From an uncultured Planctomycetota bacterium (lineage in GTDB: Bacteria; Planctomycetota; Brocadiia; CAIUPP01), in assembly GCA_903901045.1 (NCBI GenBank), contig CAIUPP010000138.1, positions 1 through 64,000 of the forward strand: 64,000 nucleotides of DNA, read 5' to 3'. Made by a program: the position numbers and the translations under genes. Below, one piece after another: positions 9,546 through 35,074 of this stretch. Below the pieces are notes generated by a model. The model saw only the letters and a program-made list of their open reading frames with translations, was not told the DNA's origin and did no database searches. The stretch's first letter is position 1. Each line of letters opens with the position of its first letter.

Positions 9546-11180
9546 CTAAGGCGTGATGACGATCGGCAGCGTTCCGATGATCGCGGCGGTTCCCTTGCCG
9601 TAGCTGGCGGTGATCGTGCAGGGCACGTCGGCGCCGGTCACCGGCAGGGTGGCCAGGAGGCCCGTCTTGCCCATCTTGACCCCCTTGATCTTGGTGCAAG
9701 CCCATTTGGCGGGGGTGACGGTGAGGTCGCCGCCGAAGTTGAGATGGCCGGTGCAGGTATATTGCGGCTGGGGGAGGGCCCCGCCGACGATCGAGGTGGA
9801 GCCGTTCACGGTGAGCGAGGTGACGTGCCCGATCGCAAAGGGTGAGTCGCTCATGTCAACGGCGCCGCCGCTGACGGTGCTGACGGAGATCCGGTACTGG
9901 TCGCCATCGGGATAGGGCGCCTGCCCGGTCTTCGACTTCCACGTCCCGACCGCTTTCCAGAGCCAGGAGCCGGTGTTCGGGACGGAGGGCGCGAGGATCC
10001 AGCTATGCCCATCCCCATCCTGCAGGGTGATCTGCATGGGAGTCTTCGTGGTGAGTTCCTCGGTCTGCGTGTGCCAACGGATGACATAGCTCTGGCCGCG
10101 CTCGAACGCGATGCCGGTGTCGGAGGGGTAATCCAGGGTCACCGGCACGATGGGCGGCTCCCCGCTGGCCGCGAGACGCAGCACGGTGACGCCGTACTGA
10201 AGCATGCCACTGTACGAGCCGCCCCAGGTCATGGAGTGGTTGAGGTTGTCCCAGGTATCATGGATGTAGATGGTGCTGCTGCCGCTATCGTAGCCATAGC
10301 CGAGCATCGTATGCCCTTCCACCTGGATCAGCACGGGCCGGCCGGCGTCAATCTCCGTCTGGAAATTGGCGAAGGTGAACCCCTGCGGCTGGGTGGGATC
10401 GGTGGGATTGGGATAGATGTACTGGCTGAAATTGGCCGTGACCGTGTAGCCCCTGGACTCGGCGAAGAGCCTCATCCCGTGGCAGCCGTCGCGCCCGCTC
10501 GGCTCGCAGCCGGTATAGTTGGACAGCGCGACGCCGTCGCTCCCGAAGTAGAAGATCGTGGAGCCGTCCGTGTTGGGGCCGTAGTAACTGGTGAAGCTGG
10601 ACTGGTTGGTTCCCATGTAATCGCCGGTGCACTCCCCCTGGGTGTGCTGCGTCCAGCCATGGACGATCCAGGGATCGGGGCCGGCATTGCCGTAGTCAAT
10701 CCAGTAGTCGTCCACGTGACCGCGAATGGCGCGCCCATCCTTGCCCATATGCGTCGCGCTGAGGGGGCACTCGCCATCCCCGCCCGGCAGGGAGCTGTTC
10801 CCCCAGAAGGTCACGTTGTTCAGCGGGCAGACGCCGCTGTTGGCCGGCCCGGCGTACATGTTCGCGTAGCCATTCCGGTCGTAGTACCCCATCATCATCG
10901 CGGCGGAGGTGGCGGAGCAGCCGTAGCACCAGGTGAAGGCCGGCACGCCGGAGAGGACGTTGACCCCTGAGGCAGGATTCGCCTTCGGGGCCTGCACCAC
11001 CGGGGCTTTGACTTCCGGAGGACGGCCCGGGACGATGATCTCGTCAACCTGTTGTCCGGTCTTGTCCACGTAGCGCCCGACCACGTAGGGATTCTTCGCG
11101 CCGTACGCGGCGGCGGAGAAGAAGGCCGACGCCAGGATCACGCCCAGCACAGCAACGCAGCTTCCGCGAAGGTAATTCAT
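9546..11180 (-). CDS. Secreted C39-like cysteine peptidase with shared C-terminal module
   Basis: A signal peptide (1-27) leads into a papain-like C39_2 domain at about residues 60-330. The catalytic Cys lies in WCYGCSATSAAMMMGYYDR, and the His and Asn/Asp candidates in GHTMLGYGYD and HDTWDN. After about residue 340 the protein repeats the module seen in the preceding beta-helix protein, starting at YPSDTGIAFERGQSYVIRW and including KTGQAPYPDGD and CTKIKGVKMGK. It probably acts outside the cell, either as a peptidase or as an anchored binding protein. The ATG follows AGGAGGA, and TTGCAG-16-TACAAT (11287-11260) is a good promoter. Length is about 544 residues. Confidence 0.78.
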   Translation of the reverse strand: MNYLRGSCVAVLGVILASAFFSAAAYGAKNPYVVGRYVDKTGQQVDEIIVPGRPPEVKAPVVQAPKANPASGVNVLSGVPAFTWCYGCSATSAAMMMGYYDRNGYANMYAGPANSGVCPLNNVTFWGNSSLPGGDGECPLSATHMGKDGRAIRGHVDDYWIDYGNAGPDPWIVHGWTQHTQGECTGDYMGTNQSSFTSYYGPNTDGSTIFYFGSDGVALSNYTGCEPSGRDGCHGMRLFAESRGYTVTANFSQYIYPNPTDPTQPQGFTFANFQTEIDAGRPVLIQVEGHTMLGYGYDSGSSTIYIHDTWDNLNHSMTWGGSYSGMLQYGVTVLRLAASGEPPIVPVTLDYPSDTGIAFERGQSYVIRWHTQTEELTTKTPMQITLQDGDGHSWILAPSVPNTGSWLWKAVGTWKSKTGQAPYPDGDQYRISVSTVSGGAVDMSDSPFAIGHVTSLTVNGSTSIVGGALPQPQYTCTGHLNFGGDLTVTPAKWACTKIKGVKMGKTGLLATLPVTGADVPCTITASYGKGTAAIIGTLPIVITP

Positions 11181-11259
11181 GGGACGGTTCCTCCTGCACA
11201 TAAACAAGGCCCCCGACGGCGTGGAATGGTGGACTATCACAGCCACTTTTTACTGCTCT

Positions 11260-13470: not shown

Positions 13471-13830
13471 TCACCACCGGAACATGTGCCGCAGGAGGAG
13501 TTCGGCGGCGAGGACGACCAGCGGGGTGACGATGGCGGCGGCGACCCCGCCGTAGAGCGCCGCGCGGGTTTTGAGGACGGCGATGTCCACGTTCTGGACG
13601 CCGTTGCTCTTGTGGAGCGCGCGCACCGCCTGGCGGATTTCCTCGATGGCGTCGCCGAGAAAGGCCATGGCCGCGCCGAGCCGCTCGATTTTGCGCTCCA
13701 GCGGAAGGTGGCGCGCGCAGGTGTCGGAGGGGCGTCGCTCCGAAGCCTGCTCCGGAAGGGGGTCCAGCGGGTCGGCGTCTTCGAGCAGGTCGCGGATCCG
13801 GTCGCCGCACGATTTCGCGAGTGGGGTCAT
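13471..13830 (-). CDS. Coiled-coil protein with C-terminal membrane segment
   Basis: A 119-residue protein with a helical coiled coil (about 45-75, ERKIERLGAAMAFLGDAIEE), a conserved-looking QNVDIAVLKTRAALYGG stretch, and a membrane helix at 93-115 ending in HMFRW. The order resembles XhlA-type and other holin-associated phage proteins. Its ATG overlaps the last codons of the radical SAM gene by 4 bases, which implies translational coupling. Confidence 0.65.
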   Translation of the reverse strand: MTPLAKSCGDRIRDLLEDADPLDPLPEQASERRPSDTCARHLPLERKIERLGAAMAFLGDAIEEIRQAVRALHKSNGVQNVDIAVLKTRAALYGGVAAAIVTPLVVLAAELLLRHMFRW

Positions 13831-15413
13831 TTCTCCCTTCCTCTCTCATCCGCGCCCAGACCCGCCGCCTTGAGCGCTTCTTCCTGGGTGAGTTGCGCGG
13901 CGATCCAGAGGACTTGCTTCATCATCACGCGGCGCGCGGCGCAGACGTTGGGGACCGGAGCCGTGACCGCGCCGCCGATTTCGACGCGGTTCTGCGCGCA
14001 GCCGCCGCCGCAGAGGTAGCGCGCCCAGCATTCCGCGCACTCCGGATGCTCGTTGATGCAGTTGCGCAGCCAGGGTTGGCGGGCGGAGGAGTCAAACGAC
14101 GGATTGGACTGATCCGACGGATCGGGCAGATGCCCTATGGCGGTGCCGCTCTCGCGATGGCAGGCGAAGATTTTGCCGTCCGGGCCGACGGTGAGGTAGC
14201 CTCGGCCAGCGCCGCACTCGCTGCCGTGGAATTCGCAGTTGAGCAGCCGCGCGAGGATCTTGCGGAAGTAGAAGAAGGGGAAGGGCTTGCCCGCCCTGGC
14301 GCGCTCGACGAACCACTCCGCCGCGGCATGCCATTCCTCTTCCAGGCGCGCGAGGTCCATCTCCGTCTGCGGGACGGAGGCGCAGCCCTCGGCCAGGATC
14401 GCCGGCTCGATGCTGACGCCAGAGATTTTGCCAAGCCGGTAAAGCGCGTCGAAGAACTCCAGGCGCTCGACGAGCTGCGCGGGGAGTTCGGAGAAGGTCG
14501 CGCGGATGGAAGGGATGATGCCGGCGGCGTTGAGGGCGTCGAGACCGGACATTGCGAGGTCGAAGGAGGACGGATGATTTGCGATTGGCGATTGGCGATT
14601 ACGCGGTGCGCACGGCGCACCTGTGATTTGCGAATTAACGGCGGCGTCCGCGGCCGTTGGCCGCGATGCATTATGGATTTCCTTGGGGCCGTCCAATGAG
14701 AGGAGGACAGAGAAGTTGAAGCGCTTGAGCGCGGCGGCTTTGAGCGGGGTGATGAGGGTGCCGTTGGTGGTGACGTGGAGGCTGTAAGAGACCTTGCGCT
14801 CGTAGGCGAGCTGGTAGATGCGCTCGGCGGTGAGGATCAGGGTCGGCCAGGCGAGGAGAGGCTCGCCGCCGAAGAAAGAGACGGACAACGGAGCACGATT
14901 TCTGAATTCTGATTTCTGATTACTGATTTCTGACTTGGCGTCCTTGGCGACAGGTGCGCCTGCGCACCGGGCTTGGCGGTTCACTCCATCGTCGAACAGC
15001 GAGAGCGCTTTGAAGGCGGTTTCGGGGGGCATTGCAGGCGCGCCGTGCGCGCCGCCAGGGACACCGTCGTAGTCGGCTGCGAAGCAGTACTTGCAGCGCA
15101 GGTTGCAGGCATGGGTGAGGTTGAGGACGAGTTTGCGGACCCGTTCGACTCGCTCCGCTCGCTCAGGGCCGCCGGCAGGCGGCGGGAACTCCGGAGCGAC
15201 GCCGGAGAAGAGCAGGCCGGTGAAGCCGTCAGGGCCTTTCTCCAGCTTGTGGGCGGCGGCCGCGTCCACCTGAACGGCGCAAAGGGAATTCGGGTCGAAG
15301 GCGACATGGACGTCGTCCGGCCATGAGAACAGAACTGTCTCCGGCTTGCACGGTTTCACGCTGCGCGGGGGCGCGCACTTCACGTTCAGCAATCGGATCA
15401 CTTTTGTCTCCAC
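13827..15413 (-). CDS. Radical SAM/SPASM peptide maturase
   Basis: This 528-residue enzyme has the radical SAM motif CNLRCKYC at about residue 102, followed by FFGGEPLL and a TIM-barrel core. A C-terminal SPASM region has Cys at CEFHGSECGAGRG, at ACHRE, and in PECAECWARYLCGGGC, enough for two auxiliary Fe-S clusters. This is the architecture of Cys-rich peptide maturases (CcpM, SCIFF maturases, QhpD), which form thioether bridges. It directly follows a tail protein with about 80 Cys, its obvious candidate substrate. The GTG at 15413 is preceded by AAAGGAG with 6-base spacing; an ATG at 15479 lacks a ribosome site. Two heptad-repeat inserts (about residues 158-173 and 253-283) interrupt the fold in frame. 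Confidence 0.85.
   Translation of the reverse strand: METKVIRLLNVKCAPPRSVKPCKPETVLFSWPDDVHVAFDPNSLCAVQVDAAAAHKLEKGPDGFTGLLFSGVAPEFPPPAGGPERAERVERVRKLVLNLTHACNLRCKYCFAADYDGVPGGAHGAPAMPPETAFKALSLFDDGVNRQARCAGAPVAKDAKSEISNQKSEFRNRAPLSVSFFGGEPLLAWPTLILTAERIYQLAYERKVSYSLHVTTNGTLITPLKAAALKRFNFSVLLSLDGPKEIHNASRPTAADAAVNSQITGAPCAPRNRQSPIANHPSSFDLAMSGLDALNAAGIIPSIRATFSELPAQLVERLEFFDALYRLGKISGVSIEPAILAEGCASVPQTEMDLARLEEEWHAAAEWFVERARAGKPFPFFYFRKILARLLNCEFHGSECGAGRGYLTVGPDGKIFACHRESGTAIGHLPDPSDQSNPSFDSSARQPWLRNCINEHPECAECWARYLCGGGCAQNRVEIGGAVTAPVPNVCAARRVMMKQVLWIAAQLTQEEALKAAGLGADERGREK
14575..14655. repeat. In-frame GATTTGCGATTGGCG repeat insert in the radical SAM gene
   Basis: The stretch carries GATTTGCGATTGGCGATTGG and GCGCACGGCGCACC, the same heptamers that fill neighbouring spacers, yet the reading frame stays open. 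It encodes about 30 residues (INRQSPIANHP-like) between conserved strands. Confidence 0.6.
14892..14945. repeat. In-frame TGATTTCTGATTACTG repeat insert in the radical SAM gene
   Basis: A second run of heptamers (ATTTCTGAATTCTGATTTC...) is translated as AKSEISNQKSEFRNR just before the conserved FFGGEP strand. The same heptamers occur in the spacer near 20530. Confidence 0.6.
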
Positions 15414-15547
15414 GCCGATCTCCTTTTTTCGTCGCCAGCCGTCCTCATTGCGGCCAGCAGCTTTTCCTTGCAGTGGCAACAGCCGCGCGCATCCCTGCGG
15501 CCGTCGTGAGGCTGATGCTCCTTCAAACGTTTCTCAAGAGTCCTCAA
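15398..15547 (-). CDS. Candidate 49-residue Cys-containing protein between tail and maturase genes
   Basis: A TTG start overlaps the TGA of the tail gene (TTGA), and the ORF runs 49 codons to a TGA at 15400-15398, overlapping the GTG start of the radical SAM gene by 16 bases. The product is basic and contains GCCHCKEKLLAAM, a CCxC cluster. The tight overlaps on both sides suggest a coupled gene. It could be a small zinc-binding protein, a maturase partner, or a peptide substrate. No homologue comes to mind, and the absence of a clear ribosome site lowers confidence. Confidence 0.42.
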   Translation of the reverse strand: MRTLEKRLKEHQPHDGRRDARGCCHCKEKLLAAMRTAGDEKRRSAWRQK

Positions 15548-23302: not shown

Positions 23303-24388
23303 CTACGCCGGTTGAACACGGCCTTCGGCGCACTGGCTCGCGCCCAGGCCATCGCCCTCTATTTCCCGCAGCGCGCGGAGAAGGCGGAAGGCGGCGTGCG
23401 CCCAGGTGAAGCGGCGGCGGACGTGCTCGGCGGCGCGGCGGCCGATCTGCCCGATGCGCCGCGGGTGCTGCCTGGCCCAGAGGATTTTCGCGGCAAGGTC
23501 GGCGACGTCCGGCTCGACGGCCCGGAGGAGCAGGTCGCAGTTGCCATGCGGCGAGAGCAGGCGAAACTTGCGGCCGGGCGTCGCGCGCAGCGGGATGGCG
23601 CAGCGCTCATCGGCCAGGTCCAGGAGCGAGGTGCAAGGGGTGTACAGGGCGGGGAGCCCGCAGGCCATCGCCTCGCCCAGGGTGAAACCGAACCCCTCCC
23701 CCATGCTCGGGAGAGCGAAGAGGTCCGCGCTCTGATACAACTCGCGCAATGCGGCGATGCCGAGGTCGCGGCTGTCGAAGATGACGTTACCCGCGCGCTC
23801 AAGCCGGTTGGTGCCGGTGGTCTTCATGTAAAGCTCGTAGCCGGGGACGTTCTGAAACGCGCGCCAGGCACCGAGGAGAAATTGGTACCCCTTGCGGTCG
23901 TTCGGCGCGCCGACCCAGAGGACGCGGAAGGCGCGACGGCCCAACGGCCGCGGACCGGGATAGAAGCTCTCCACGTCCACTCCCTGCGGGACGTACAGGA
24001 CCGGGACGGGGACGAGCTTCTTGAAGACGGGCACGAGGAAGCGCGCGGTGACGAAGATGGCGTCGGCGCCCTGGTGGAGCGCGCTGTCCTCAGCGCGCTC
24101 GGCGCCGCAGCAAGCCGGCTGGGGACAGCCGGCTCCACCACGACCTGGGGTAAGCGTGGCGCTCTCCCATTCCGGGAGTTCGGGGAATTCCCACGCGGTC
24201 CAGAGGACGTTGCAGCGCCCCGGGATCGGCCGGAAGGCGTGCGGCGGACAATGGTGCAGCGCGAGCGGGGCGTCGGGGTCGAGGCGGACGCCCGCCATCT
24301 CCAGGCAGCGACGCCCCCAGCGGTTGCCCTGGGTGTAGCCATAGGCATCGCCGATGCCCTGAACGTCGGTTGCCCAGGCGATTCTCAT
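23303..24388 (-). CDS. GT4-type glycosyltransferase within the head-gene cluster
   Basis: About 361 residues with a GT-B fold. The C-terminal nucleotide-sugar domain is clear: FRVLWVGAPNDRKG, then ADLFALPSMGEGFGFTLGEAMACGLP with the E-x7-E motif. It lies between capsid and connector genes on the same strand, so it is cargo or decorates virion or host surface. Residues about 85-110 (PACCGAERAEDSALHQG) come from two host palindromes inserted in frame at 24077-24139. The ATG at 24388 begins MRIAWATDVQG; an upstream ATG would add 20 low-complexity residues. Confidence 0.75.
   Translation of the reverse strand: MRIAWATDVQGIGDAYGYTQGNRWGRRCLEMAGVRLDPDAPLALHHCPPHAFRPIPGRCNVLWTAWEFPELPEWESATLTPGRGGAGCPQPACCGAERAEDSALHQGADAIFVTARFLVPVFKKLVPVPVLYVPQGVDVESFYPGPRPLGRRAFRVLWVGAPNDRKGYQFLLGAWRAFQNVPGYELYMKTTGTNRLERAGNVIFDSRDLGIAALRELYQSADLFALPSMGEGFGFTLGEAMACGLPALYTPCTSLLDLADERCAIPLRATPGRKFRLLSPHGNCDLLLRAVEPDVADLAAKILWARQHPRRIGQIGRRAAEHVRRRFTWAHAAFRLLRALREIEGDGLGASQCAEGRVQPA
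24077..24139. repeat. Two palindromes inside the glycosyltransferase gene
   Basis: GAGCGCGCTGTCCTCAGCGC (24077-24100) and GCCGGCTGGGGACAGCCGGC (24115-24134) are members of the GCTG(A/T)GGACAGC-centred family that also occurs three times near 25.7 kb. The reading frame is kept through both. Confidence 0.7.
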
Positions 24389-24525
24389 GTCATGCCTCGG
24401 AAAGAAATGGACGGAGATGGACGAACACGGACTGACACGGACAGGCACGGAGGACAGCGGAGGTTCGTGGCGTAATATTCACGTTGCCGTCCTCCGTGTC
24501 TCCGTGCCCCCGTGGTGAGCCGCTG

Positions 24526-30196: not shown

Positions 30197-30505
30197 TAAA
30201 CGCCGGCAGTTCTCTGTTCCGTGTCGCGTCGGACACGATCACTTTGTACGTCGCTTGCGGCCGGTGCGCCCTTGCGGCAAATGCGTCTCACACGACCGTG
30301 CATCGGATGCGCCGGTCACGACAAGGAACAGACAACTGCCGTACGTCATACACTCCACAAAAAGTCCGGAAGGTGGCGCGGACTATCCAGTCCGCGATTC
30401 ATCTCGTTTCCATGGCCGCTGCAGCGGCCAAAGCTCTATTCATTCAAAACTCAGTACTCAGTGTTCAGTACTCTGCACTCTCCGTAAAAAGCGTCTCCTC
30501 ACCCC
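30197..30505. other. Spacer with repeats only
   Basis: This 309-base stretch holds GTGGCGCGGACTATCCAGTCC (about 30370) and CAGTACTCAGTGTTCAGTAC heptamers (about 30447-30482). I see no credible gene. Confidence 0.5.
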
Positions 30506-30527
30506 TATCAGGGTTCGTATACCATGA
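30506..30527. repeat. Direct repeat, left copy
   Basis: Begins TATCAGGGTTCGTATACC. The partner at 32530 differs at one position. Confidence 0.7.
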
Positions 30528-30795
30528 GAACTTGACATCGCGGGCTGTAGAAGGACACTACCGAAAGGGAGAATGGGCTTGGTAGGAGAAGTCCAGGAAG
30601 AATTGGTGTTACTCAGAAAGACGATGCGACCAAGGAATACGCGGGGGTTCAGCAGCTATAGCGGATCGTCTTTAAGCACAAGTACATCGAAGGATGGGGA
30701 ACGCACCAATGCGGAATTGGTTTCAGAAGAATCCGGCAGGAAAGAAATGGGCAATCCTCAGATGTCACCATCCCATGCGCGGATGCTTGGGAACT

Positions 30796-31980
30796 TCAAA
30801 TCTGGGTGGCTCCGGATTGCTTGGGGCGCATTAGCTGGAACGCGGCGAGGACGCGCGCAATTAAGAGAGGTTCGCTGGAAAAGTAGGCAGTGTTGGCTTG
30901 ACTTCCCCGCTCGCGTTGAGGAACTACGTCGCAGGATACCAATAGTTGTTTATCGTCGCAGATCAAAAAGCCGTTTGCAAACGGCATCTTCGCGTACAAC
31001 ACAGCTTCCTTCCGTTTGTTCTTTAATGTCTCAAGCGGCTGCGGCAAAGGCTCATCTTCGGCCGTTACCGGCAGGAGGACTACGACTGAACGAGGAGTTT
31101 TAGTGCCGCTGATGTTCTTCAAGCCAAAATCCCGAATGGATTTGGCGATGTCCATGTCCAGTGATCGTGTTGCCCACAAGACGTTTTCTGACGACTCGCG
31201 AATCATGGTAGTTGCCAGGTCTACAAAATCTTGCCTCTTCGCCAATCGGATCGTAGCAAAGTTCATTTCCGCGCAAGTGTCCCAGCAGGAGTGGTCGGCG
31301 TCGACGGTTCCAGTAATCAAGTCGGACAGGCATTCTTTCCGACCGGCTGCAAGTGGCAGCCCAGCGGGAGGAACGATTTCCGCCACCAAGAAAAGCGGCA
31401 CTCCAACCATGAAATAAATGTAAGCTGCGGGCGGAAAAGAATGCCAGAGGAACTGCACTAGGGCCCAATCACTGCCTGGGTTGACATAAAACTTCAATTT
31501 GTCGACAAGCCAGTCGGAGACGCCCTGAGGAGCCAACTCCAACAAGTGGGGGGCTATCTGCACCATAAACGTCTTGAAGAAGATGCATAAGGGCACGGAG
31601 ACAATGAAGATGACTCCAACGACGCTCAAGGTACCGGAAATTGCCGCCTTTCCGTTAAAGCGCGTAATCAATCTCAGAAGGCATGGGGTCAAGGCACAGA
31701 CTAGGAAGAGGTGGTTTGCGTGGGCAACCGGATTGCCGAAGATGTAGGAGAAGATGAAGATTACGCCGACGTAAAGGGCCATCGTGAGCAGGGCAAATGG
31801 TAACCACAACTTCTTTACAAGAAAACCAAGACAACCAAGTCTGTCCTTCCGCCAAGGAAGGTAGATGAGTGCAAACGATGTAAAATACAGATGGAGGTAA
31901 TCGAGAAGCGCCCCTAAACTCCTGGCGATCCAAGTGGTGATGGTGGCGAAATATCCAGGCGCACGCTGGTAAAGGTTCAT
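30796..31980 (-). CDS. Multi-TM protein with PLD-like C-terminal domain
   Basis: 394 residues. Four or five membrane helices lie in the first 215 residues (for example ALLTMALYVGVIFIFSYIF). The cytoplasmic C-terminal half, from DFVDLATTMIRESSENVLWA to KMPFANGFLICDDKQLLVS and FSSEPLLIARVLAAF, has the shape of a phospholipase D-like fold, but I do not see the HxK motif, so it is probably a binding or sensing domain. Base composition is lower in GC than its neighbours. It sits in a direct-repeat-flanked insert of a prophage, so superinfection exclusion or phage defence is a reasonable inference. Confidence 0.65.
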   Translation of the reverse strand: MNLYQRAPGYFATITTWIARSLGALLDYLHLYFTSFALIYLPWRKDRLGCLGFLVKKLWLPFALLTMALYVGVIFIFSYIFGNPVAHANHLFLVCALTPCLLRLITRFNGKAAISGTLSVVGVIFIVSVPLCIFFKTFMVQIAPHLLELAPQGVSDWLVDKLKFYVNPGSDWALVQFLWHSFPPAAYIYFMVGVPLFLVAEIVPPAGLPLAAGRKECLSDLITGTVDADHSCWDTCAEMNFATIRLAKRQDFVDLATTMIRESSENVLWATRSLDMDIAKSIRDFGLKNISGTKTPRSVVVLLPVTAEDEPLPQPLETLKNKRKEAVLYAKMPFANGFLICDDKQLLVSCDVVPQRERGSQANTAYFSSEPLLIARVLAAFQLMRPKQSGATQI

Positions 31981-31992
31981 TGGCAGGCTGGG

Positions 31993-32163
31993 TTACTTGC
32001 GGAAACCAGCAACTGCCACAACTGTGGCAATCCCAGAACAAGCCAAGCGCAAGATACCAATCGGCGTAGAAAGGGCCATGGCAAAGAACACCGCTAGTAC
32101 AACCGTAGCCCAAGTGTTCGTCCAGAACCGCCGCTTGTTGCGTGTTTGCTGCAAAGTTCTCAC
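31993..32163 (-). CDS. 56-residue membrane protein encoded upstream of the PLD-like gene
   Basis: A GTG start at 32163 is preceded by AGGGGAG with 6-base spacing. The product begins MRTLQQTRNKRRFWTNTW, has two hydrophobic helices (about 19-33 and 37-53) and ends GFRK. The stop is 12 bases before the start of the PLD-like gene, so both are likely co-transcribed. It may be a partner subunit of that protein. A possible promoter (TTGACG 32220-32215, TATTAC-type -10) lies upstream. Confidence 0.6.
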   Translation of the reverse strand: MRTLQQTRNKRRFWTNTWATVVLAVFFAMALSTPIGILRLACSGIATVVAVAGFRK

Positions 32164-32529
32164 CTTAGCTCCCCTGTGCTTTAAATGTCCGCTGTATTAC
32201 TATTCGCCGGCTTGCGTCAAGACTTTAGCGAAAAACAGCCCCAATTACTGCAATAGAGACAATATTGACGCCCCGGCCATAGCCAGCATCGTCAAGTAGT
32301 TATAAAGGGTTGCAACAGCGCCTGCACCTCTGCGCGTGGGGTGAAATGGACCATGGGTGATACTTCTACCACCGCAAGCGCCTTTTTGTCAAGAGGATTT
32401 GTAGAAATTTCTGTGCCCAAGCACTACCCCCTTAGCTTACTCAAAGGCTCCTTCGAGTCAAGGACCTGGCCAATAAAGTTTACATACAGTACATGCCGGC
32501 ATGCAGTACAGCATTAGAACCGCTACCCA
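32164..32529. other. AT-rich leader of the cargo operon
   Basis: About 366 bases with no supported gene. It includes a possible -35 TTGACG (32220-32215, minus) and, at about 32487-32507, an imperfect palindrome GTACATGCCGGCATGCAGTAC near the right direct repeat. Confidence 0.4.
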
Positions 32530-32551
32530 TATCAGGGTCCGTATACCATGA
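32530..32551. repeat. Direct repeat, right copy
   Basis: Begins TATCAGGGTCCGTATACC. It lies 20 bases beyond the stop of the sigma-like gene. Confidence 0.7.
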
Positions 32552-32570: not shown

Positions 32571-33023
32571 CTACCCCCTCTCCGTTCTACCCACCTCTTG
32601 TACCTTGGGCGTGAAATCCGTTGTCGTTCCTGCCGCTCCCAATACGACGTCGTACAACTCCGCCAGCGCGCGATACATACACGCCTGCACCCGGCCCTTA
32701 CTCACCCCCAGCCTCCCCGCCGCCTCGTTGAGCGAGCAGCCCAGCCCCCAGACGAGCATGGCGGAGAGGTATTCGCGGCTGGAGAGCCGCTCGCGGTAGA
32801 CGTCCGCCAACCGCATGAGGCAGCGGCGGCCCTCGGAGGCCTCGCGCAGCGCCGCGCGCGCGGGTCCGTCGGGCAGGCGCTCGGCATGGGCGATGCCGAT
32901 CCATTCCCGCCCGTTGCGCCCGAAATCGGGCGAGGGGAGCAGCGCCTCCACCTCGGCGCAGGGGTGGCCGGTATCCAGGCAGGTGCGGCAGTCGCAGGCG
33001 GCGCACAAAGCGGCATGGGACAT
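32571..33023 (-). CDS. Sigma-70 region 4-like phage regulator
   Basis: 150 residues. The C-terminal half reads SSREYLSAMLVWGLGCSLNE then AAGRLGVSKGRVQACMYRAL, a typical sigma region 4 helix-turn-helix. The N-terminus has Cys pairs (CAACDCRTC), perhaps a small zinc site. It probably activates the structural genes downstream. A GGAGACC site precedes the ATG. Confidence 0.65.
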   Translation of the reverse strand: MSHAALCAACDCRTCLDTGHPCAEVEALLPSPDFGRNGREWIGIAHAERLPDGPARAALREASEGRRCLMRLADVYRERLSSREYLSAMLVWGLGCSLNEAAGRLGVSKGRVQACMYRALAELYDVVLGAAGTTTDFTPKVQEVGRTERG

Positions 33024-33243: not shown

Positions 33244-33987
33244 TCAGTGTCCATCTGTGGATAACCCGTTATGAATCCGCCGCAGTTCCTCCACGCCCAG
33301 GTCGAAGGTGAGCTTGAGCGTGTACCCGCCGCGCCTGCCCTGCCTGCCGCGGGCGGCGTCGAGGGGGCGAGGCAGCCGTCGCAGCGTGAGCGGGATGTGC
33401 GCGATGCGCCCGCAAAGCCCCCGCACGAACTCCACCCCGCTGTTGATCTCCACGATGCTGTGCGCGCTGGAGGTGTCGATCTGCCATATGCCGGCGCAAC
33501 TGACGCGCGGCAGCATGACCATGAGGCTGCCGATGAACCGGCATTCGCGGCGGTCGAGCAGTTCGCAGGGGCAATCGCGCTCGACCAGCGAACGCGCCGC
33601 CTCCGCGCAGTCGCACTTCATCTCCCCGCACCGGTCGCACAGCAGCCGCGCCGCGCGCCGACCATCTCCTTTGCACTTCAGCACGCCCCCCTTGCCGTAC
33701 AGCTTGCACGCCTGCGGGAAGAAGAGGCCCGGCTCCTCGGCGGGGAAAACGATGTCCAGCTCCCTGGGCTGCGCGCCGTACAGCTCCCGGATGACGGGGT
33801 AGGCGCGCAGGGAGTCCTCGTCGAATTTGAAGTGCCCGAGCTCCACGGGCGTCTGGACGCTGCGGTTGTTGCGTCGGAAGAGGCGGCGCTCACCCAGGCG
33901 GATGCGTCCCAGCCGCGGCAGCCGCCGAAGCTGGGTGAGCTGCTGAATGCGGTTGAGTCCCCACTGCGTGTTACGATGCTGCTGCAT
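33244..33987 (-). CDS. Gp3-like recombination directionality factor
   Basis: About 247 residues. The pattern VELGHFKFDEDSLRAYP, LYGAQPRELDIVFPAEEPG and GKGGVLKCKGDG, then a CDRCGEMKCDC zinc-like cluster, matches Gp3-type proteins that switch serine integrases toward excision. It is the first gene of the leftward operon. No serine integrase is in the window. The ATG at 33987 has AAGGAGGG upstream. Confidence 0.72.
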   Translation of the reverse strand: MQQHRNTQWGLNRIQQLTQLRRLPRLGRIRLGERRLFRRNNRSVQTPVELGHFKFDEDSLRAYPVIRELYGAQPRELDIVFPAEEPGLFFPQACKLYGKGGVLKCKGDGRRAARLLCDRCGEMKCDCAEAARSLVERDCPCELLDRRECRFIGSLMVMLPRVSCAGIWQIDTSSAHSIVEINSGVEFVRGLCGRIAHIPLTLRRLPRPLDAARGRQGRRGGYTLKLTFDLGVEELRRIHNGLSTDGH

Positions 33988-34189
33988 GACTGCGCCCTCC
34001 TTCATAAGGAGCCCCCTGTGAAACGCGACGCCACGCGGCGTCACGGTCGATGAGTTGATATGAACTGTCCAATTTTGGGCGGTTCAGGGTGAGCAACTGC
34101 GGCACAGACTGTCCCGGAAATCGACACCTTGCGGCTAATCCCCGTTTCCAGCGCCTCATGGCGCGAACGCACCCCCGGCCACTTTGGGC

Positions 34190-34462: not shown

Positions 34463-35074
34463 TTGAAAGAGTGCGGCATACAGGCGCGGCTGGCTGAGCT
34501 CCGCAAGCACGTGGGAGAGGCCGGGGCCTCGTTGGCGGAATTTGCCCGGCTGACGGGGATCGAGCGCCGCCTGCTGGCGCGCTACGAGAAGGATGTCGCC
34601 CCCTCCGCGGATAACGTCGCGAAGATCGTGAAAGGGACGCGCTGCTCCGCCGCCTGGCTGCTCACCGGCGAGGGGCAGATGTTTCAGGAAGAGGGGACGC
34701 GCCCGCAGCGAGTGCCCGTCGTGGCCACCGCCAGCGGCGCGGGTGCCGCCCGCGTGGCCTTCACCGACCACGGGCGCGAGGAGCGCCGCATGACCCTCCC
34801 CTCCGATGCGCACCTGGTGCAGGTGACCGGCGACAGCATGGTCCCCATCGCCGTCAGCGGGCAGTTCGTCTGGGTCTCCAACGAGTCCCCCGTCAACGGC
34901 GACCTCGCCCTCATCGAGCTGCCCGACGACGAGGTGCTCTTCAAGCGCGTCTATCTCGCCGGCAACATGCTCCAGTGCATCAGCATCAACCAGGACCCCC
35001 GCTACGCCCCGATGATGATCCACCGCAAGGACGTCCGGCGCGTGCGGAAAGTCCTCGGCACCTGGTACGGATAG
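34463..35074 (+). CDS. CI-like repressor (HTH plus S24/LexA-like domain)
   Basis: 203 residues from a TTG start. The N-terminal HTH (SLAEFARLTGIERRLLARYE) is followed by a LexA-like domain with TGDSMVPIAVSGQFVWV carrying the catalytic Ser, and a Lys candidate in DDEVLFKRVYL. RecA-stimulated self-cleavage would induce the element. The gene diverges from the RDF operon across the control region at 34.4 kb, the usual lysogeny switch layout. Confidence 0.85.
   Translation: MKECGIQARLAELRKHVGEAGASLAEFARLTGIERRLLARYEKDVAPSADNVAKIVKGTRCSAAWLLTGEGQMFQEEGTRPQRVPVVATASGAGAARVAFTDHGREERRMTLPSDAHLVQVTGDSMVPIAVSGQFVWVSNESPVNGDLALIELPDDEVLFKRVYLAGNMLQCISINQDPRYAPMMIHRKDVRRVRKVLGTWYG

What the first reader, a model, noticed from the sequence alone, without database searches (positions are those of the whole stretch)
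30506..32551. Direct-repeat-flanked cargo with a PLD-like membrane protein and a tiny membrane partner
A 22-base repeat with one mismatch brackets about 2 kb of less GC-rich DNA containing a 56-residue two-TM protein and a multi-TM protein with a PLD-like domain that lacks HxK. Placement between the regulator and terminase genes fits a moron acting in superinfection exclusion or defence. I do not recognise it as a named system.
Basis: partly seen in the sequence, partly recalled or inferred. Interest (0 to 1): 0.72.

Follow-up and report, generated by a model that had tools for sequence, protein, structure and literature searches.

The report
Orphan membrane-gene pair in planctomycete prophage
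A small foreign-looking pair of membrane-protein genes sits in a virus genome embedded in a planctomycete bacterium, between two copies of a short repeat that turns out to be scattered elsewhere in that bacterium, so the repeat is probably an old insertion spot rather than the signature of a mobile cassette.

Summary
The repeat is real (25/27 nt; 30501-30527 and 32525-32551; none in 300 shuffles) and brackets the lowest-GC 2 kb of the window (51.5% against 65%). Inside is a plausible two-gene operon on the minus strand (56 aa, then 394 aa), within an HK97-type siphovirus prophage of a planctomycete. The left window copy carries that repeat's upstream half; the right copy has a weak trace of its downstream half. 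The simplest reading is that the cargo inserted into, or recombined at, a pre-existing dispersed repeat; no transposase or integrase is inside. The nearest related prophage (TerL 51%) has regulator and terminase about 130 bp apart with no cargo, so the genes look accessory. No relatives of either protein were found. The PLD-like reading of the C-terminus is only suggestive: it aligns in register with the HxK position, but one of 60 shuffles scores as well, and the predicted fold is low-confidence. A membrane-acting moron is the best guess; a lysis (holin) role in the lambda-like position is a real rival.

The parts
30439..30505 (+). upstream part of a composite dispersed intergenic repeat (ACTC-rich stretch), continuous with the left direct-repeat copy
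   Evidence: 74% identity of 30439-30527 to G000:C109:48493-48577; alignment better than 300 shuffles for C109 and C56
30501..30527 (+). left direct-repeat copy (27 nt)
   Evidence: same core at C109, C56, C133 in own genome
30528..30795 (.). cargo, non-coding part downstream of the 394-aa gene, 51% GC
30796..31980 (-). 394-aa orphan protein: N-terminal half with about 4-5 hydrophobic segments, C-terminal about 160 aa predicted alpha/beta; PLD-like register lacking HxK is unproven
   Evidence: gene is real; fold not settled
31993..32163 (-). 56-aa orphan protein, two hydrophobic segments, 8 K/R, no acidic residues, GTG start with GGGGAG upstream
   Evidence: only sub-threshold hits to DUF4231 (E 0.065) and SLATT_1 (E 0.18)
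32164..32529 (.). cargo, non-coding part upstream of the 56-aa gene, 49% GC, with a CATGCCGGCATG palindrome at 32492-32503
   Evidence: no sigma-70-type promoter match
32525..32551 (+). right direct-repeat copy (27 nt)
32609..32633 (+). weak match to the downstream part of the dispersed repeat (about 20 of 25), overlapping the 3' end of the regulator gene
   Evidence: shuffle p about 0.03 against C109 and C56, 0.34 against C133; suggestive only
32571..33023 (-). prophage regulator with weak sigma-70 region 4 similarity and an N-terminal Cys motif (context)
   Evidence: N-terminal relative in L018/L143
29702..30196 (-). small terminase-like gene (context)
   Evidence: lies next to TerL; relative found in viral locus L103
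28119..29597 (-). large terminase subunit (context)
   Evidence: phrog_2, E 2.3e-40

Best explanation
The 2-kb block is an accessory two-gene module (a moron) of a planctomycete siphovirus-type prophage. It entered the gap between the sigma-like regulator and the terminase genes at a copy of a dispersed intergenic repeat of the host genome, leaving repeat sequence on both sides. Shown: the repeat pair, low GC, two-gene operon layout, the dispersed copies elsewhere without cargo, and absence of cargo in the nearest related prophage. Inferred: that the insertion happened in the repeat (by recombination or an unidentified recombinase), and that the two membrane proteins act together at the cytoplasmic membrane of the lysogen, most likely to block or abort infection by other phages, with the soluble C-terminal domain of the 394-aa protein as the sensing or regulatory part and the membrane segments as the effector.
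For: Repeat pair 25/27; GC z = -3.6; dispersed copies at C109, C56, C133 without cargo; left copy continuous with the upstream half of that repeat; right copy weakly followed by the downstream half; cargo single-copy in own genome and absent from L018/L143, where the regulator N-terminus and TerL lie about 130 bp apart; prophage context; two orphan membrane proteins in one apparent operon. A published prophage two-gene defence with a transmembrane member (Butters gp30/gp31, PMC7542560) and the membrane protein PdpSau (PMC10127798) show that this kind of function is plausible.
Against: No functional evidence, no homologues, no known defence family. The two repeat copies differ at two positions, so this is not a fresh duplication. 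No recombinase within the block. The nearest relative is distant (51% TerL) and also shows no TerS or RDF match, so gene absence there is not a clean empty site. The position also fits a lambda-like lysis cassette.
Confidence: 0.4

Rival explanations
1. The bracket is fortuitous: two independent copies of a dispersed intergenic repeat happen to flank a region of unrelated origin; the repeats have nothing to do with how the genes arrived.
For: The genome is rich in such repeats: 54 matches to a 581-nt composite; the two copies differ from each other at 2 of 27 positions.
Against: The core itself has only five copies in 4.77 Mb at up to three mismatches, so two in the same orientation 2 kb apart at the GC boundary is unlikely by chance; left and right copies look like complementary halves of one repeat, the right half weakly.
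Confidence: 0.27
2. Lysis module: the 56-aa two-TM cationic protein is a holin (or antiholin) and the 394-aa protein a membrane partner, in the lambda-like place between late regulator and small terminase.
For: Size, two TM segments and operon position; same strand as regulator and terminase; no holin or endolysin was recognised in the other prophage ORFs scanned, apart from a C39-like peptidase at 9546-11246.
Against: Foreign GC; absent from the nearest related prophage; no holin family match; the 394-aa protein matches no endolysin model.
Confidence: 0.17
3. A non-autonomous integrative element that uses the dispersed repeat as its attachment site and is moved in trans by a recombinase.
For: Direct-repeat ends at a sequence found singly elsewhere in the genome.
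Against: No second copy of the element, no other closely spaced repeat pair of this core, no inverted ends, no recombinase inside; the core is absent from viral contigs.
Confidence: 0.08
4. A minimal SLATT/2TM effector system: the 56-aa protein is a truncated SLATT-like pore former regulated by the C-terminal alpha/beta domain of its partner.
For: Sub-threshold hits to DUF4231 and SLATT_1 over the same residues.
Against: E-values 0.065 and 0.18 are near chance level for a short hydrophobic protein; no nucleotide synthetase was recognised nearby.
Confidence: 0.06

Closest known systems
Butters gp30/gp31 prophage defence pair (PMC7542560)
   Same: two prophage genes acting as a pair, with a transmembrane protein
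   Different: no sequence relation was tested; here both proteins have membrane segments and no function is shown
PdpSau of S. aureus prophages (PMC10127798)
   Same: membrane-anchored accessory prophage protein with a cytoplasmic C-terminal part
   Different: single gene, other architecture, tested function; ours is orphan and untested
Lambdoid lysis cassette (S-R-Rz between Q and nu1; from general knowledge)
   Same: position between late regulator and small terminase, small two-TM protein first in the operon
   Different: no endolysin or spanin recognised; foreign composition
PLD superfamily half-domain (PF13091)
   Same: C-terminal strand/helix order E-H-E-H-E-E-E-H in a low-confidence model, and an alignment in register with the HxK and D positions
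   Different: HxK absent (FAN), no significant score

Membership tests
PLD superfamily (PLDc_2, PF13091) | significant profile match | tested here: not met
   no Pfam PLD hit up to E = 1; hhalign score 18.0, P = 0.029, one of 60 shuffles reached 18.5
PLD superfamily (PLDc_2, PF13091) | HxK catalytic motif | tested here: not met
   aligned residues are FAN
PLD superfamily (PLDc_2, PF13091) | PLD fold | tested here: inconclusive
   model pLDDT 42.6, pTM 0.37; no PDB match at E <= 0.001
SLATT / DUF4231 2TM effector | match over curated cut-off | tested here: not met
   14.1 bits against 24.7; 11.8 against 41
Transposon or integrative element | recombinase gene or inverted ends inside the repeats | tested here: not met
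   only two ORFs with gene character, no family hit; no terminal inverted repeats
Prophage moron | accessory gene with foreign composition, absent in related phage | tested here: met
   only one distant relative available, so the test is weak
Prophage moron | own promoter and terminator, expressed in the lysogen | tested here: inconclusive
   no sigma-70-type promoter match; the only terminator-like site on that strand lies inside the gene; planctomycete signals are not covered; expression not testable here
Phage holin | match to a known holin family | tested here: not met
   none in Pfam or PHROGs for the 56-aa protein; holins are diverse, so this does not exclude the role
Known anti-phage defence system | PADLOC model hit | tested here: not met
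   none up to E = 1

The most novel reading that the evidence does not exclude
A previously undescribed two-gene prophage exclusion system in which a multi-pass protein with a catalytically dead PLD-like soluble domain senses infection and works through a 56-residue two-TM partner, carried in a slot made by a dispersed host repeat that serves as an integration site.
Probability: 0.08. Interest if true: 0.6.

Novelty: new member of a known kind. Interest (0 to 1): 0.27.

Why it matters
Planctomycete phages are little sampled (general knowledge). A prophage slot between regulator and terminase that takes up orphan membrane genes would be a place to look for exclusion genes in this phylum. The case also shows that a direct-repeat bracket must be checked against the whole genome before it is read as a mobile cassette.

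Tried and rejected
Homologues of the 394-aa protein: viral contigs, genome contigs, phages, plasmids, 392 genomes of the phylum and 75 of the class. Two weak hits in other genomes (L028, L029) were a 113-aa open frame and a universal-stress-protein-like frame, rejected as chance. The 56-aa protein and the C-terminal half in viral contigs: nothing. PDB by sequence: nothing. Two structure predictions without an alignment: low confidence; the PDB fold search has no usable match. Rfam: nothing. Repeat core in viral contigs: none. G001:C244 match with three mismatches: no longer match seen, treated as chance. The CATGCCGGCATG palindrome as a repressor operator: no copy by the repressor gene. The internal terminator-like hairpin at 30970-30985: fewer such sites than shuffles give. 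Literature searches for a PLD/transmembrane prophage system or a SLATT-PLD pair gave no match.

Full report
What is there. The window lies in a 4.77-Mb, 154-contig genome whose nearest relatives with a name are Planctomycetota. From about 35.1 kb leftwards there is a siphovirus-type prophage, mostly on the minus strand: an S24-type repressor (34463-35074, plus), an RDF/Gp3-like protein (33244-34044), a protein with weak sigma-70 region 4 similarity (32571-33023), then the cargo, a small-terminase-like gene, TerL, portal, protease, major capsid protein, head-tail adaptors and tail genes.

Observation. The repeat pair is real and beyond chance: 22 nt with one mismatch, 27 nt with two; no such pair in 300 shuffles. 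The block between is the lowest-GC 2 kb of the window, 51.5%. It holds two genes in one apparent operon on the minus strand: a 56-aa GTG-start gene with GGGGAG upstream, and 12 nt further a 394-aa gene. The long frame is not chance (398 stop-free codons against at most 249 in 1000 shuffles).

The repeat is not private. A search of the whole genome found the same core at G000:C109:48493, C56:2523 and C133:371, outside the annotated-looking reading frames there, plus a variant 183 nt from the C109 copy. These copies sit in a composite dispersed repeat: an ACTC-rich stretch, a sequence like CACCTATATCAGGGTTCGTAYACCAYGAAATCGCG, then CCCTTGTCAYTCCTGCC and a GC-rich palindrome. The left window copy is preceded by the upstream half of this composite (74% identity over 30439-30527; beyond 300 shuffles against C109 and C56) and is followed by cargo. 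The right copy is preceded by cargo and has only a weak trace of the downstream half, CGTGAAATCCGTTGTCGTTCCTGCC at 32609-32633 (shuffle p about 0.03 against two copies and 0.34 against the third), about 55 nt further away than in the other copies and overlapping the end of the regulator gene. This is what an insertion into a pre-existing dispersed repeat would leave, but the right half of the argument is thin.

Accessory status. The only near relative with a readable locus (L018 = L143, Planctomycetota bacterium UR.bin147, TerL 51%) has the repressor (46%), a frame matching the regulator's N-terminus at about 2.5-2.86 kb and TerL from 2987, with no cargo between. TerS and RDF gave no match on that contig either, so it is not a clean empty site. 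The cargo is single-copy in its own genome.

What the proteins are. Neither protein matches Pfam, PHROGs, NCBIfam or PADLOC at a meaningful level, and no relative of the 394-aa protein was found in viral contigs, genome contigs, phages, plasmids or 392 genomes of the phylum; the 56-aa protein was searched in viral contigs only. Hydrophobicity puts about four or five membrane segments into residues 48-203 of the 394-aa protein and two into the 56-aa protein, which has eight basic and no acidic residues. For the PLD-like reading I built a profile of PLD half-domains from relatives of the host. Its best alignment to the C-terminus falls in register, with FAN where HxK would be and the following D conserved, but one of 60 shuffles scores as well. 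The single-sequence model of the C-terminal 160 residues has strand/helix order E-H-E-H-E-E-E-H, compatible with a PLD half-domain but also with other alpha/beta folds; confidence is low (pLDDT 42.6) and no PDB chain matches significantly. So the PLD-like label stays a guess.

Function. By position, composition and membrane character the best guess is a moron acting at the lysogen's membrane against other phages, as prophage membrane proteins do elsewhere (PMC7542560, PMC10127798). Nothing computed here decides between them.

Verdict. Observation confirmed; mobile-cassette reading weakened by the dispersed copies; accessory status supported by one distant relative; PLD and defence unproven. 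Interest is modest.

Noticed in passing
G000:C109:48179-48759, C56:2405-2629, C133:261-392 (L009, L010, L011): A composite dispersed intergenic repeat with several separate repeat modules, including a second one, CTATRTCAGGAAATGGGCGACAA, about 160-190 nt upstream; origin and function unknown.
   Followed up: partly
window 13827-15479: A radical SAM protein gene next to the prophage tail region, on the same strand as the phage genes.
   Followed up: no
window 23303-24448: A glycosyltransferase-like gene sits between the capsid gene and the head-tail adaptor genes of the prophage.
   Followed up: no
window 33244-34044: A Gp3-like recombination directionality factor is present (E 2.9e-38), but I saw no integrase gene next to it; the prophage may be incomplete or use a distant integrase. 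Not searched for systematically.
   Followed up: no
window 30970-30985: A perfect hairpin followed by TTTTT lies inside the 394-aa gene, at the codons for the FAN residues; probably chance.
   Followed up: partly
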